Notes under the pieces: generated by a model | What the model was told of the DNA's origin: nothing | Database searches by the model: none | What the model saw: the letters and a program-made list of their open reading frames with translations, nothing else | NCBI RefSeq assembly: GCF_001552375.1 | Contig: NZ_BCRB01000010.1 | Span: 1 to 64,000 of the forward strand | DNA length: 64,000 nt | From: Cellulomonas iranensis NBRC 101100 = JCM 18110 | Lineage (GTDB): Bacteria; Actinomycetota; Actinomycetes; Actinomycetales; Cellulomonadaceae | Direction: 5' to 3' | Position numbers and translations under genes: made by a program | Part shown: piece after piece, positions 56,191-61,093 of the stretch | How the letters are laid out: each line of letters begins with the position of its first letter | Position numbering within the stretch: position 1 is the stretch's first letter

Positions 56191-56865
56191 TCAGAGGGCG
56201 GGGCCGGTCTCCTCGAGCAGCCGCAGAGCCGCACTCACCCGCGGGTTGCGTGCGGGGTCGGTGTCGATGCCGAGGGTCGTGTAGACCGCGTAGACGTGGT
56301 TCTGCACCGACTTCTCGGTGATGCCGAGCTGCGCCGCGATCCCCGCGTTCGACAGGCCCTGCGCCAGCAGCCGCAGCACGGTGTACTGGCGCTGCGTGAG
56401 GCGCGCGACGCTCGACCCGGCCCGCGGCGCGACACGCTCGAGCAGTGCGGGGTCCAGGACCGTCTCGCCCGCGGCCGCCGCGCGCACCGCGTGCAGCAGC
56501 GTCGCCTCGCTCGTCGTCGACGTCTTCGACAGGTAGCCCCAGCCGTGCGCGACGTCGCGCGGCAGGTCGAGCAGCAGGTCCATCGCGTCGTGCGCCGACA
56601 GCAGCAGGACGCCCAGCGACGGCTGCGAGCGGCGCAGCGTCACGCCGAGCGCGATGCCGTTGCCGTCGGGCAGGTCGATGTCGAGCACGACGACGTCCAC
56701 GACGCCCGGCGTCAGCACGGCGCGCGCCTCGACCGCGGAGCCGAGGGACGTGACGACCTCGAAGCCGCCGGCGTCGGCGAACGACCGCTCGAGCATCGAG
56801 CGGAACAGCGGCTGGTCCTCGACGACCGCGACGCGCAGTCGTCGTGGCGGGGTGGCTGAAGTCAT
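56191..56865 (-). CDS. NarL/LuxR-family response regulator
   Basis: 224 residues: receiver domain (VAVVEDQPLFRSMLERSFAD; phospho-Asp in VVVLDIDLPDGNG; conserved Lys in LSKTS) and C-terminal LuxR helix-turn-helix (LTQRQYTVLRLLAQGLSNAG, IAAQLGITEKSVQNHVYAVY). ATG 56865 is used, with GATACT ending 7 nt upstream as -10. Divergent from the histidine kinase at 56943, which is its probable partner. DosR belongs to the same family, relevant to the motif at 58.2 kb. Confidence 0.92.
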   Translation of the reverse strand: MTSATPPRRLRVAVVEDQPLFRSMLERSFADAGGFEVVTSLGSAVEARAVLTPGVVDVVVLDIDLPDGNGIALGVTLRRSQPSLGVLLLSAHDAMDLLLDLPRDVAHGWGYLSKTSTTSEATLLHAVRAAAAGETVLDPALLERVAPRAGSSVARLTQRQYTVLRLLAQGLSNAGIAAQLGITEKSVQNHVYAVYTTLGIDTDPARNPRVSAALRLLEETGPAL

Positions 56866-56942
56866 CGGGACAAGTATCGTCACGCAGGCGCGTCGACGCA
56901 GGCGGACGCGTCGCGGACGAGGGCGTCGGGCGGGGTGAAAAG

Positions 56943-58121
56943 ATGCAGGGCGGACAGCAGGTCGCGGCGACGGCGACCCGGACGCGCGACGAGGTCGAGG
57001 ACCGTCGCGCGCTGCTGGGCGCCGCAGGCGTGGTGGCGCTCGGGTACGCGTTCGGCGCGGCCCTGCAGAGCTCGTGGATCTACTCCCAGGTGCTCCCCGA
57101 GTGGGGCGAGATCGAGCTGTGGCGGCGGTTGTCGGCGAACGGGGTCGCGGTCACGGGGCTCGTGGTCGCGCTCGTGCTGCTGCGGGTGAGCAGCACGCCC
57201 GGGATCGTGGGTGTCGCGCTGCGTGGGCTCGGCGCAGCAGTCGTCATGGGCGCGCTGCGCGTCGCGGCGCAGGTCGTGCTGGGCGTCTACCCGGCGTCCG
57301 ACACCGAGTCGCTCGAGGCCGAGGCGTTCGCCGGCACGCTGATCGCCACGATCTCGGCAGCGATCGGTGTGGCCGCGATGCTGCTGCAGCGGCGCTCGCG
57401 CGCCGCGACGCGTGCGGCCGAGCGCGAGGCGGTGAGCGTCGAGATGGCCGTGCGCGCGCTCGAGGACGAGGAGATCCGGGTGCGACGCGCGGTGGCCGAG
57501 GGGCTGCACGGCACGTTGCAGCAGCGCCTGGTCCTGGTGGACGCGCGGCTCGACGCGGTGCAGGCCGCGACCGAGGGCACGCTGCCGGCCGCGACGGCCG
57601 ACGTGCGCTGGGTGCGCTCGCAGCTCGCGGAGGCGCGCGACCTCGACGTCCGGCGCATGAGCCGGCTGCTCTACCCCGACCGGCTCGAGCTCGGGGTGGT
57701 GCCGGCCGTGCGGGCGCTGCTCGGGCGCCTGCCCGCGACGATCGCGACCAACCTGCAGGTCGGCGAGGGTCTGCGGCACGTCGACGACCCGACCCGCGGC
57801 GGGCTGACGATCCCCGAGCGGCTGCTCGTGGTGCGGGTCGTCGAGGAGGCCGTGACGAACGCGCTCAAGCACGGCCCGCCGTCACGCGTGGACGTGCGGA
57901 TGGACGTCACGGACGGCGTGCTCGACGTCGTGGTCGTCAACGACGGCGGGTCGTTCGACGCGCCTGAGGAACCCGACCCGACGACGGGCACGGCGCGGCT
58001 CGCGCAGCGGCTGCGGATCGCGGGCGGCTCGCTGCACGTCGGGCCGGGCCCGGGGGGCGGCGCGGTGGTCGACGCGCGTCTGCCGCTGGGGGTCCTGGCG
58101 GGCGAGGACCGCACGGACTGA
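56943..58121 (+). CDS. Sensor histidine kinase (HisKA_3-like, NarL-partner type)
   Basis: 392 residues with four hydrophobic helices in the first ~150 (LLGAAGVVALGYAFGAALQS; NGVAVTGLVVALVLLRV; two more), a dimerisation/phosphoacceptor helix with probable His in AEGLHGTLQQRLVLVDARLD, and a HATPase_c domain (VVRVVEEAVTNALKHGPPS; VNDGGSFD). ATG chosen for GGGGTGA upstream; ~33 residues of upstream in-frame sequence overlap the response regulator and are rejected. Likely senses an envelope or membrane signal and controls the operon downstream. Confidence 0.88.
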   Translation: MQGGQQVAATATRTRDEVEDRRALLGAAGVVALGYAFGAALQSSWIYSQVLPEWGEIELWRRLSANGVAVTGLVVALVLLRVSSTPGIVGVALRGLGAAVVMGALRVAAQVVLGVYPASDTESLEAEAFAGTLIATISAAIGVAAMLLQRRSRAATRAAEREAVSVEMAVRALEDEEIRVRRAVAEGLHGTLQQRLVLVDARLDAVQAATEGTLPAATADVRWVRSQLAEARDLDVRRMSRLLYPDRLELGVVPAVRALLGRLPATIATNLQVGEGLRHVDDPTRGGLTIPERLLVVRVVEEAVTNALKHGPPSRVDVRMDVTDGVLDVVVVNDGGSFDAPEEPDPTTGTARLAQRLRIAGGSLHVGPGPGGGAVVDARLPLGVLAGEDRTD

Positions 58122-58200
58122 GCGGGTCGGGCCAGGCCGCAGGGCCGACCCTCGGACGGGTGCGCGACCGCGCCGACGAGTGACCTGCGCCACTCGTCCA

Positions 58201-58219
58201 GCCTAGGACGAAAGTCCCC
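58201..58219 (-). promoter_or_regulatory. DosR-like motif copy 1 (GGAC-N4-GTCC, CCTAGG)
   Basis: The minus strand reads GGGGACTTTCGTCCTAGGC. On the plus strand AGGACG-AA-AGTCCC matches the DosR/DevR box core GGGACT-WW-AGTCCC at 12 of 14 positions. A related sequence faces it at 58301-58319. Binding by the adjacent NarL-type regulator is inference. Confidence 0.5.
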
Positions 58220-58300
58220 CTGACCTGCGGGTACGCGTCTCAGAGAAGGCGTTTTCCGCCGGGTTCGCGGGTGAAGAACTCGGGCATCTCCGACGACCCC

Positions 58301-58319
58301 CGGGAGTTTTCACCTAGGC
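58301..58319 (+). promoter_or_regulatory. DosR-like motif copy 2
   Basis: CGGGAGTTTTCACCTAGGC matches copy 1 (opposite strand) at 14 of 19 positions, including the shared CCTAGGC end, 80 nt before the start of the alternate-signal protein gene and next to a probable promoter (GATAGT at 58348-58353). Confidence 0.45.
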
Positions 58320-58398
58320 CTCCGCCGGAGGGGTGAGCGCGCCGATCGATAGTGGAGAGGAACCCATCTGAACACCCGTCCAAGAAGAGGTCCTCCCC

Positions 58399-58893
58399 GT
58401 GTCCACGTCCTCGAAGCGCGCCAACCGTCGCAAGCTCCTCGCCGTCGGTCTCGGTGTGCTCGGCGTCGCCGGCCTGTCGCTCGCGTCCGCGTCGCAGCTC
58501 AACGTCAACGGCACGTCCGCGTCGGTCGCGCAGGCCGGCACGGCCGCCGTCACGACCGCGGTCTGCCAGTCCAGCACCGTCGCCGTCTCCTACGGCCTCG
58601 CCTCCGGCACCCCCGGCTCGCTCGGCACCGGTGCGCAGTTCGGCTTCGCGGCCGAGGCCGACGCGCTCACCCTCACGTCGTTCGACGCGGCCTGCGGCGG
58701 CAAGACCGTCAAGGTCGCGCTCGGCTCCGCGTCCGGCACCCAGATCGGTGCCACCTACAGCGGGACCGTGCCCGCGTCCGGCGGCGCCGTGACGCTCACG
58801 CTCAACGGCGGCACCCCCGCCTTCGGCTCGGCGCTGACGCCCGCGCAGATCAACAGCATCAGCAAGGTCGCCGTCACGGTGTACGGCGCCTGA
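58399..58893 (+). CDS. Alternate-signal (SipW-dependent, TasA/CalY-like) exported protein
   Basis: 164 residues. N-terminus SSKRANRRKLLAVGLGVLGV then an Ala/Ser stretch matches the alternate-type signal peptides of SipW substrates rather than a standard Sec signal. The mature ~125 residues are Gly/Ala/Thr/Val rich, beta-predicted, with two cysteines (VCQSSTVAVSY and DAACGGKTVKVALGS). Its stop is 2 nt before the signal peptidase start. A surface-fibre or matrix subunit is the best inference; sequence identity to TasA itself is not obvious. Confidence 0.75.
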   Translation: MSTSSKRANRRKLLAVGLGVLGVAGLSLASASQLNVNGTSASVAQAGTAAVTTAVCQSSTVAVSYGLASGTPGSLGTGAQFGFAAEADALTLTSFDAACGGKTVKVALGSASGTQIGATYSGTVPASGGAVTLTLNGGTPAFGSALTPAQINSISKVAVTVYGA

Positions 58894-58895
58894 CC

Positions 58896-59396
58896 GTGCC
58901 CCGCGTCCAGCTCGCAGCACCCGCCGGGACCCGGCGGGTGCTGCGAGCTGCGCGGACGGCGGCCGGCTGGGCCGTGCTCGGCGTCGTCGTGCTGCTGCTG
59001 TGGCCCACGAACCTCGGCGGCTGCACGTCGTTCACGCTCGTCTCCGGGCACTCGATGGAGCCCACCTACCGCACGGGCGACATCGTCGTCGCGCGGTGCG
59101 GCGTGCCCCAGGTCGGCGACGTCGTCATCTACCGGCCCGCCGCGCTGGACGGCGCGCGCATCATCCACCGCGTCATCGGCGGCGACCCCGACGGGTGGCG
59201 GCTGCAGGGCGACAACAACGACGCGGCGGACCCGTTCACCCCGACGCAGGACGAGGTCGTCGGCGTCGAGGTCCTGCACGTGCCGCGCCTCGGGCTCGCC
59301 GTCGGCTGGGCCGCGACCCCGGGCGTGTGGGCCAGCGTGCTCGTGCTCGCGCTCGCGCTCGTCGTGTGGCCGTCCGCACCGCGGGTGCGCACGTGA
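58896..59396 (+). CDS. sipW: Signal peptidase I, S26B (SipW/ER) type
   Basis: 166 residues with an N-terminal TM (AGWAVLGVVVLLLWP), catalytic Ser in SGHSMEPTYRTGDIVVARC, and His instead of Lys as general base in ARIIHRVIGG, then LQGDNNDAADPF and a C-terminal TM. The Ser/His arrangement defines the archaeal/ER/SipW class, which processes the alternate signal peptides encoded next door. A 21-bp inverted repeat covers codons ~5-19; an alternative in-frame GTG at 58938 lies in its right arm. Confidence 0.88.
   Translation: MPRVQLAAPAGTRRVLRAARTAAGWAVLGVVVLLLWPTNLGGCTSFTLVSGHSMEPTYRTGDIVVARCGVPQVGDVVIYRPAALDGARIIHRVIGGDPDGWRLQGDNNDAADPFTPTQDEVVGVEVLHVPRLGLAVGWAATPGVWASVLVLALALVVWPSAPRVRT
58908..58950 (+). 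terminator. 21-bp perfect inverted repeat (attenuator) at start of signal peptidase gene
   Basis: Arms 58908-58928 and 58930-58950 are perfectly complementary around a single A. It begins 15 nt after the stop of the exported-protein gene, where an attenuator would keep the substrate in excess over the peptidase. No T-run follows. Confidence 0.65.
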
Positions 59397-60208
59397 CCCG
59401 GCGCCGCGCCGTGCGCCGCATCGCCGTGACGCTGAGCGGCGCCGCCGTGCTCGCCGTCACGCTGGTCCTCCTCGCCGCGCAGGTCGCCTCCGCCGCCGGC
59501 CTGCCGCTCACCGGCGCCGGTGCGCGCGCGTGGGCCGCCACGGCGCAGCGCTGCCAGGAGGCGCCCGTCACCGTCACCGCCGCGTCCGGCACCGCCGTGC
59601 GCGTGACCGGTGTGCAGGCCGCGTGCGTCGGGCGACCCCTCGTCGTCACGCTGTACGACCCCGCGGTGACGTCGTCCGCCGCGCAGTCGCGCCGGTTCGC
59701 CGGCCAGGCGACCGCGGCCGCGACGACCACCGTCGCCGGGGGCGCCTTCACCCCGGCCGCCGCTCTCGTGCCCCGCGTGACGGTCGACGGCTGGCTCGTG
59801 CCGTCCACCTGGAGCGGTCCGCAGCCGTTCGTGCGGTGCACCGTGCCGGACGACCCCGCCGCGTCGTGCACGGCGACCCTCGTGAACCGCCAGCAGTGGG
59901 GCTACCCGACGCCGACCACGTGGCTCGCGAACGTCGTCGTGTCCTCGACCAGCCCCACGCCCGTCACGTGGCAGGTCGACGTCGACCTCTCCGACCCCGA
60001 GCTGCCGTTCCTCGCGCGGGCGCTCACCGACGGCACCGGCGGGCTCGTGCGGGTCGCGGCGAGCGCGTGCGGCGACGCGCCGCGCGTCGTGACCGTGCGC
60101 GGCACGACCGCGTGGGGGTCGTTCCACCAGGTGCAGGACGGGCGCACGTCGTCGATCCAGCTGCGCGGCGACCTCACCGGCTCCGGCGGCCTGCTCACCT
60201 GCCCCTGA
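59393..60208 (+). CDS. Secreted partner protein with CBM2-like C-terminal region
   Basis: 271 residues. Signal region VTRRRAVRRIAVTLSGAAVL and a long hydrophobic core to ~40; then a module resembling the 58.4-kb protein (RCQEAPVTVTAAS ... VQAACVGRPLVVTLYDP); then residues 159-270, bounded by cysteines (SCTATLVNRQQWG ... LLTCP), with Trp in QQWG, TTWLANVVV, VTWQVDVDL and TAWGSF. Cysteines at both ends and this Trp spacing resemble cellulose-binding CBM2, but similarity is remote. GTG overlaps the peptidase stop (GTGA). Confidence 0.75.
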   Translation: MTRRRAVRRIAVTLSGAAVLAVTLVLLAAQVASAAGLPLTGAGARAWAATAQRCQEAPVTVTAASGTAVRVTGVQAACVGRPLVVTLYDPAVTSSAAQSRRFAGQATAAATTTVAGGAFTPAAALVPRVTVDGWLVPSTWSGPQPFVRCTVPDDPAASCTATLVNRQQWGYPTPTTWLANVVVSSTSPTPVTWQVDVDLSDPELPFLARALTDGTGGLVRVAASACGDAPRVVTVRGTTAWGSFHQVQDGRTSSIQLRGDLTGSGGLLTCP

Positions 60209-60223
60209 CGGCGGGCCGGCGCG

Positions 60224-61093
60224 TCAGTCGACCGGCAGCGGGTCGGGCCGCTTCGCGACGCGCGCGTCGCCCGACGACCGCCGCCGCAGCCGCCGCGTGG
60301 CCCACGGGTAGGCGTGCTCGCGCAGCCAGTGCGCGTCGGCGCGCACGCGCTCGAGGCGCGGGACCGGCGGGAGCGGCGCGAGGGGGTCGTCCCAGTCGGG
60401 CCGGTCGGGCGGCAGGCCGAGCGCCACGAGCGCGGCCTGCGCGACGCGTGCGTGCCCGTCGGTCGTGAGGTGGATCCGGTCCTCGGCCCACATGCGCCAG
60501 TCCAGCAGGCTGCGCATGCCCCACAGGTCCAGCACGAAGGCGCCGTGCCGCCGCGCGATCGACCACACGTGCGCGCTGAACACGCCCGTGCGGCTCCGCG
60601 TCGTGCGCACCAGCGGGCTCTCGCGCGCGTCGAAGCCCGTCGACAGCAGGACGTCGGCACCGTCCGCGCGCAGCCGCGCGACCGCGCGCTCGAGGTCCGC
60701 CGCGACACGGTCGACGTCCACCGACGGGCGCAGGATGTCGTTGCCGCCCCCGACGAGGCTCACGAGGTCGGGCGCCATCGCCCGGGCGGCCGGCACCTGC
60801 TCGGTGAGGATCGGGCGCATGAGGCGACCGCGCACCGCGAGGTTCGCGTACTCCAGCGCCGGCAGGCCCGCGGCCGTGCGGCGCGCCGACAGGTGCGACG
60901 CGAGCTGGTCCGCCCAGCCGCGCAGGGGTGCGTCCTCGCCGTCGGGCGCGTCCCACAGGCCCTCGGTGAACGAGTCGCCGACCGCGACGTACCGCGACCA
61001 CCGCGGCGGGTCGCCCGCGGCGGCGGGGCCGCCGGGCGGGGCGTCGGCGGGTCGCGGAGCGGTCGGGCCCTCGGGGTCGCGCGCGGACGTCAT
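60224..61093 (-). CDS. SGNH/GDSL-family hydrolase
   Basis: 289 residues; catalytic Ser in VAVGDSFTEGL, Gly/Asn blocks NLAVRGRLM and GGGNDILRP, and Asp/His in DRIHLTTDGH. Cytosolic (no signal peptide), with a Pro/Ala-rich first ~30 residues. An esterase or lipase-type acyl hydrolase of unknown substrate. CATGAT ending 6 nt before the ATG could be a leaderless -10. Confidence 0.9.
   Translation of the reverse strand: MTSARDPEGPTAPRPADAPPGGPAAAGDPPRWSRYVAVGDSFTEGLWDAPDGEDAPLRGWADQLASHLSARRTAAGLPALEYANLAVRGRLMRPILTEQVPAARAMAPDLVSLVGGGNDILRPSVDVDRVAADLERAVARLRADGADVLLSTGFDARESPLVRTTRSRTGVFSAHVWSIARRHGAFVLDLWGMRSLLDWRMWAEDRIHLTTDGHARVAQAALVALGLPPDRPDWDDPLAPLPPVPRLERVRADAHWLREHAYPWATRRLRRRSSGDARVAKRPDPLPVD

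What the first reader, a model, noticed from the sequence alone, without database searches (positions are those of the whole stretch)
56191..60208. Two-component system next to a SipW/TasA-like surface-export module
A NarL-type regulator and a divergent HisKA_3-type kinase are followed by an alternate-signal exported protein, an S26B Ser/His signal peptidase and a second secreted protein, all tightly packed (2-nt gap, 4-nt overlap). SipW in Bacillus processes biofilm fibre subunits; this set looks like an actinobacterial counterpart with its own sensor. In a xylan-degrading organism it may build surface fibres for attachment. The parts are known families; the assembled system and its trigger appear undescribed as far as I can tell.
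Basis: partly seen in the sequence, partly recalled or inferred. Interest (0 to 1): 0.72.

Follow-up and report, generated by a model that had tools for sequence, protein, structure and literature searches.

The report
Sensor-controlled export cassette for surface adhesin
In cellulose-degrading Cellulomonas bacteria a two-gene sensor sits next to a small export cassette (a special signal peptidase plus two secreted proteins, one with a probable carbohydrate-binding tip), and the whole cassette has been swapped several times for a different version while the sensor and its probable switch sequence stayed in place.

Summary
The five genes are real and conserved as a set. The peptidase is a Ser/His (S26B, SEC11/SipW-type) enzyme. 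In 25 same-genus genomes the kinase occurs in 24; in 23 of these a Ser/His-peptidase cassette lies directly downstream. The 'alternate signal' claim fails: the exported protein matches no SipW-substrate or TasA model. Its signal peptide is nonetheless 66% identical between homologues against 30% for the mature part, suggesting a dedicated peptidase. New here: (1) a promoter-like element (box A, box B 32-34 bp on, TANNNT at +77 to +80) precedes the cassette in most genomes; box A occurs once in the own genome. (2) Two cassette types, each with its own peptidase clade and shaft protein, were exchanged at this site at least three times; in one close pair the change falls between the element and the next gene. 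(3) The last protein is modular: an N-terminal domain shared with the shaft protein plus a C-terminal domain, CBM2-like in the window and a ricin-B lectin in one relative. Best reading: a two-component system switches on a SipW-like adhesive surface fibre. Regulation is well supported; polymerisation is only inferred.

The parts
56191..56865 (-). NarL/LuxR-type response regulator (ORF opens at 56883; ATG start at 56865)
   Evidence: Pfam Response_reg and GerE; D17, D62, S90 and K114 at least 95% conserved in 32 homologues
56943..58121 (+). membrane sensor histidine kinase, divergent from the regulator
   Evidence: HATPase_c; H189 and N306 at least 95% conserved in 40 homologues; orthologue in 24 of 25 genus genomes
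58269..58287 (+). box A GGGTGAAGAACTCGGGCAT, probable regulator binding site
   Evidence: Only match to the pattern in the own genome and, at up to 3 mismatches, in the window; conserved upstream of both cassette types
58303..58316 (+). degenerate box B (consensus inverted repeat GGTGCTGGCACCCA, here GGAGTTTTCACCTA)
   Evidence: At +32 from box A in 13 of 18 loci, at +33 in 2, at +34 in the window and its close relative
58350..58355 (+). -10-like TAGTGG (consensus TANNNT at +77 to +80 from box A)
   Evidence: A TANNNT hexamer at that offset in 16 of 23 loci; the window and its close relative depart at the last base (sequence)
58399..58893 (+). EXP1: secreted single-domain protein, proposed shaft subunit; signal peptide about residues 1-31
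   Evidence: Signal region 66% mean pairwise identity against 30% for the mature domain; two conserved Cys; beta-sandwich model of moderate confidence
58896..59396 (+). S26B (Ser/His) signal peptidase
   Evidence: TIGR02228 60 bits, cut-off 51.85; S53/H91/D106 invariant; closest solved relatives are human SEC11C/SEC11A
59393..60208 (+). EXP2: secreted two-domain protein, proposed tip adhesin/initiator
   Evidence: N-domain homologous to EXP1 (hhalign 97.7%); two beta-sandwiches predicted
59855..60187 (+). EXP2 C-terminal CBM2-like domain (residues 155-265)
   Evidence: Four best structural matches are CBM2-type cellulose/chitin-binding domains, Z 5.5-7.0; hhalign to CBM2 81%, 40 columns

Best explanation
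The divergent two-component system senses an unknown envelope or environmental signal; the phosphorylated regulator binds boxes A and B and activates the downstream cassette from a promoter with a TANNNT -10 hexamer. EXP1 and EXP2 leave through Sec, and the Ser/His peptidase, SipW-like, removes their signal peptides. EXP1 subunits then assemble into a short fibre, most simply by N-terminal donor strands as in TasA, and EXP2, which shares EXP1's N-terminal domain but carries a carbohydrate-binding C-terminal domain, caps it as the adhesive tip for plant polysaccharide. Shown by computation: gene set, enzyme type, cis element, cassette exchange, domain modularity. Inferred: direct regulator binding, which proteins the peptidase cuts, polymerisation, ligand.
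For: Kinase in 24 of 25 genus genomes, with a Ser/His-peptidase cassette adjacent in 23. Operator: box A pattern once in the own genome; information content 1.4-2.9 bits at core positions against a flank mean of 0.27; off-locus near matches lie mostly inside genes. In Sanguibacter suarezii, which has two cassettes, only the one behind the sensor shows the element. Peptidase clade and shaft type change together, and the two types alternate at one site at least 3 times; between close relatives identity stops 116-139 bp after the kinase stop, past both boxes, and resumes at the next gene. EXP1 signal 66% against mature 30% identity. EXP1 and EXP2 N-domain homologous, E 1e-12, controls negative. 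EXP2 C-domain: CBM2 fold matches, 26-27% identity to two C. fimi CBDs, hhalign 81%; Ricin_B_lectin (1e-21) in its place in one orthologue. TasA/TapA precedent for donor strands and SipW (PMC9674648).
Against: EXP1 has a conventional ASA site without the TasA-type aromatic residue, so an ordinary signal peptidase might cut it. No TasA, TIGR04088 or Pfam match for EXP1 or EXP2. EXP1 model only pLDDT 67; no Foldseek hit below 1e-3 for either model; CBM2 match below Pfam threshold and over 40 columns only by profile. The cassette occurs without the sensor in Demequina, Actinotalea and Arthrobacter, so the sensor is not required for its function. No cell-anchoring signal seen in the window type. 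Box B is degenerate in the window itself, and box A is missing in forward orientation in four genus loci.
Confidence: 0.55

Rival explanations
1. A sensor-controlled secretion cassette for soluble or wall-bound carbohydrate-binding proteins, without any fibre: EXP1 and EXP2 are exported, cut and act as monomers.
For: No fibre-protein homology; no TasA among fold-search rows; CBM2-like or lectin C-domains.
Against: EXP1, the first cassette gene, is a single-domain protein without a recognisable ligand-binding domain and shares its domain and mature N-terminus with EXP2, as expected of subunit and tip; the N-tail of mature EXP1 is predicted disordered.
Confidence: 0.27
2. The regulator pair controls something else; its position beside the cassette is inherited synteny and the conserved element serves another regulator.
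For: Flanking housekeeping genes are also syntenic; G016 keeps the sensor without the cassette; several genera have the cassette without the sensor.
Against: Element preserved across exchanged cassettes, not seen upstream of sensor-less cassettes, and lost with the cassette in G016; sensor recurs immediately upstream of a cassette in Sanguibacter.
Confidence: 0.13
3. A true TasA/camelysin homologue system diverged beyond recognition.
For: Same gene logic: peptidase plus two secreted proteins that share an N-terminal domain; beta-sandwich folds.
Against: No sequence match to TasA and none among the fold rows; hits are mostly Ig/FN3-like sandwiches; a Cys pair is conserved.
Confidence: 0.15

Closest known systems
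tapA-sipW-tasA operon of Bacillus subtilis
   Same: Ser/His signal peptidase encoded beside its presumed substrates; major subunit plus accessory protein sharing N-terminal sequence; beta-sandwich subunits
   Different: No detectable homology of the exported proteins to TasA/TapA; carbohydrate-binding C-terminal domain on the accessory protein; a dedicated two-component system beside the cassette; no aromatic P2' residue
TIGR04088-type SipW-substrate sets of Actinobacteria (second cassette type, and two further loci of the own genome)
   Same: S26B peptidase next to short secreted proteins with a TSAAWTD-type signal; same genomic site and promoter element in relatives
   Different: Window type has an AGLSLASA-xQL signal and another peptidase clade; the second type also encodes an LAxTG wall-anchored protein, the window type does not
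CBM2 cellulose-binding domains (Cellulomonas fimi CBDs 6qfs, 1exg)
   Same: Fold, flanking cysteines and two of the conserved tryptophans by my reading of the alignments; 26-27% identity in structural alignment
   Different: No Pfam CBM_2 match; not attached to an enzyme
NarL/LuxR-family two-component systems
   Same: Response_reg plus GerE regulator, HATPase_c kinase with conserved phospho-sites
   Different: Kinase not matched by HisKA_3; probable target element specific to this locus

Membership tests
S26B signal peptidase (TIGR02228, SEC11/SipW type) | Score over curated cut-off | tested here: met
   60 bits against 51.85
S26B signal peptidase (TIGR02228, SEC11/SipW type) | Ser/His catalytic dyad in place of Ser/Lys | tested here: met
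   S53, H91, D106 invariant in 18 sequences, no catalytic Lys
Bacillus SipW equivalog (NF046067) | Score over curated cut-off | tested here: not met
   29.6 bits against 190
SipW-dependent / alternate-signal substrates (TIGR04088, TIGR04089) | Model match in the exported protein | tested here: not met
   No match for EXP1 (E 1) or 29 homologues (E 0.1)
TasA-type fibre subunit | Sequence family match | tested here: not met
   No Pfam family at E 1; none of the PDB chains at E up to 1 is TasA
TasA-type fibre subunit | Jellyroll fold with donor strand | tested here: inconclusive
   Moderate-confidence sandwich with disordered N-tail, hits mostly Ig/FN3-like
TasA-type fibre subunit | Polymerises outside the cell | not testable with these tools
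   Needs microscopy or biochemistry
NarL/LuxR two-component system | Receiver plus GerE output domain, conserved phospho-Asp | tested here: met
NarL/LuxR two-component system | HisKA_3 dimerisation/phosphoacceptor domain in the kinase | tested here: inconclusive
   No Pfam match at E 1 but H189 conserved in the EGLHG box
CBM2 | Pfam CBM_2 match | tested here: not met
   No match for EXP2 at E 1, nor for 18 homologues at 0.1
CBM2 | CBM2 fold | tested here: inconclusive
   Top four structural matches are CBM2-type, Z 5.5-7.0; profile match over 40 columns, 81%

The most novel reading that the evidence does not exclude
A fixed sensor plus promoter acts as a genomic socket into which unrelated SipW-dependent fibre cassettes are exchanged, each with its matched peptidase and shaft protein, while carbohydrate-binding tip domains are shuffled between the two fibre types: a modular, sensor-driven plant-polysaccharide attachment organelle not described before, as far as I could find.
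Probability: 0.4. Interest if true: 0.8.

Novelty: new variant of a known kind. Interest (0 to 1): 0.62.

Why it matters
How free-living cellulolytic actinobacteria hold on to plant polymers is, to my knowledge, poorly understood; this gives a locus, a probable promoter element and a testable tip-ligand prediction. It also suggests that Ser/His signal-peptidase-dependent surface systems in Actinobacteria are wider than current SipW-substrate models detect, and that they can be exchanged as units with their cognate peptidase behind one sensor.

Tried and rejected
Riboswitch or other known RNA upstream of EXP1: no Rfam match up to E 1. Sigma-70 consensus promoter or intrinsic terminator in 58050-60300: none found. 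TIGR04088 signal in EXP1: absent. TasA or other solved relative of EXP1 by sequence: only non-significant viral matches. Foldseek on both models: nothing below 1e-3; TasA was not among the rows, which does not exclude it. A second conserved box A site elsewhere, for example ahead of the recombinase-like gene in G016: single occurrence, not recurrent. Operator test on other genera with a weight matrix: best score was the Sanguibacter sensor-adjacent cassette (p 0.005 per sequence, 18 tested, so only suggestive); an Actinotalea match at p 0.005 lies far from its start codon. A first neighbourhood table used an out-of-frame UDG query and was discarded (redone). Papers: searches found no description of this locus in Cellulomonas, within an open-access library only.

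Full report
Observation. The five genes exist as described, with a 2-nt gap between EXP1 and the peptidase and a 4-nt overlap between the peptidase and EXP2. The regulator has receiver and GerE domains; the kinase has HATPase_c but no Pfam HisKA_3 match, although H189 is conserved. The peptidase passes TIGR02228 and carries an invariant Ser/His pair; its closest solved relatives are human SEC11C and SEC11A. The own genome has two further S26B peptidases, on other contigs, next to proteins that match TIGR04088 above or just below its cut-off.

Conservation. In 25 genomes of the genus (the own one and G001-G024) the kinase has an orthologue in all but G004. In 16 of the 24 the window type of cassette follows it. 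In seven others (G002, G003, G010, G019, G021, G023, G024) a different cassette occupies the same interval between the kinase and the SGNH-hydrolase gene: another Ser/His peptidase clade with classical SAAWTD-type secreted proteins and, in five checked, a protein with an LAxTG-type C-terminus. G016 has the sensor but no cassette; kinase stop and SGNH stop are about 30 bp apart. Named loci place the window type in Cellulomonas, Demequina, Actinotalea, Sanguibacter and Arthrobacter. The kinase is adjacent in all 15 Cellulomonas loci with enough flank (some are the same strains as the G genomes), and in Sanguibacter suarezii the pair lies directly upstream of the second of two cassettes; Demequina, Actinotalea and Arthrobacter lack it nearby. 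So the three-gene cassette is older or wider than its link to the sensor.

Exchange. A tree from kinase, UDG and SGNH proteins scatters the second cassette type over at least three places, one of them inside a group with the window type (the node within that three-genome group is weak, 0.356, but the group itself has full support). There, L077 is 86-89% identical in DNA to L066 and L068 on both flanks; identity ends 116-139 bp after the kinase stop, beyond boxes A and B, and resumes at the SGNH stop codon. The exchanged unit is thus the coding cassette, with sensor and promoter element kept.

Promoter element. Upstream of the cassette lies box A, GGGTGAARRRNNNSGRCRT. The window copy is the only match to that pattern in the own genome. 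In the genus 14 genomes have it at this locus and few elsewhere; relaxed off-locus matches fall mostly inside genes. Box B, an inverted repeat GGTGCTGGCACCCA, begins 32 bp after the start of box A in 13 of 18 loci (33 in two, 34 in the window and its close relative), and a TANNNT hexamer sits at +77 to +80 in 16 of 23. In the window box B and the hexamer are degenerate. If the hexamer is a -10 element, box B would centre near -49 and box A near -79, positions typical of activator sites (inference). In Sanguibacter only the sensor-adjacent cassette shows the element, and sensor-less cassettes of other genera do not score. G032, a relative in another family with cassette but no sensor, has none. 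That the regulator binds these boxes is inferred, not shown.

Exported proteins. EXP1 has a conventional-looking signal ending ASA, but that signal is the best conserved part: mean pairwise identity 66% for residues 12-31, 37% for the following tail, 30% for the rest, over 30 sequences. Ordinary Sec signals usually drift faster than the protein (general knowledge), so I read this as recognition by a dedicated peptidase. EXP2's N-terminal domain is homologous to EXP1 (hhalign 97.7%, 1e-12; controls 0.1% and 0.4%). The EXP2 model (pLDDT 78) shows two beta-sandwiches; for residues 155-265 the four best structural matches are CBM2-type domains, including two from C. fimi at 26-27% identity. Z values of 5.5-7.0 alone could be a common arrangement; the profile match to the own genome's CBM2 domains (81%, 40 columns) adds moderate weight. 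In G005 the same position is a ricin-B lectin (1e-21), and a cassette of the second type carries one too. C-terminal domains are shared between the two cassette types although the N-terminal parts differ: 52%, 32% and 37% identity in three pairs (the third alignment also includes a short upstream stretch). The last protein therefore looks like a tip whose ligand domain is shuffled.

Mechanism. The arrangement parallels TasA-SipW-TapA, where SipW cuts both secreted proteins, TasA assembles by N-terminal donor strands and TapA shares similarity with that strand (PMC9674648). I propose the same logic: sensor, activator, Sec export, Ser/His peptidase, EXP1 fibre, EXP2 tip with a carbohydrate-binding domain. 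The own genome encodes 22 CBM2 domains and its close relative Cellulomonas sp. B6 is (hemi)cellulolytic (PMC5000834), so plant polysaccharide is a plausible target. EXP1's single sandwich with a disordered mature N-terminus fits donor-strand assembly, but the model is of low to moderate confidence and no multimer was run.

Verdict. Known parts in a conserved, apparently undescribed assembly; new variant of a known kind. Gene-set conservation, peptidase type and cassette exchange are solid; control by the adjacent sensor is likely (about 0.85); CBM2-like tip about 0.6; fibre about 0.5-0.55.

Noticed in passing
G000 contigs C72 (L001) and C151 (L003): Two further S26B peptidases beside TIGR04088-type secreted proteins in the own genome, not linked to this sensor.
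   Followed up: partly
L057 (G020), L109, L115, L123: Second cassettes near the same flanking genes; C. persica (L123) carries both cassette types, on either side of the SGNH gene.
   Followed up: partly
L061, L062, L064, L067, L059, L060, L063: A further small secreted protein family (for example MAHEHVRARRAAGVTLAWLGCAGLAVSMARA...) closes the cassette in several genomes.
   Followed up: no
L135, L136, L140 (Nocardioides/Marmoricola), L137 (Acidimicrobiia): Ser/His peptidase between two secreted proteins with ASAA-type signals (MKKLIVVPVVAVVAAVGAASAAGF...) outside the Micrococcales; may be a wide unannotated family.
   Followed up: no
L069, L070, L072, L076, L077: The second cassette type includes a protein with an LAxTG-like C-terminal sorting signal; the window type has no visible anchor.
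   Followed up: partly
L061, L062, L064, L067 upstream regions: These loci lack box A in forward orientation but have TTCACCC near the kinase stop and, in most, a good box B; the element may be rearranged.
   Followed up: no
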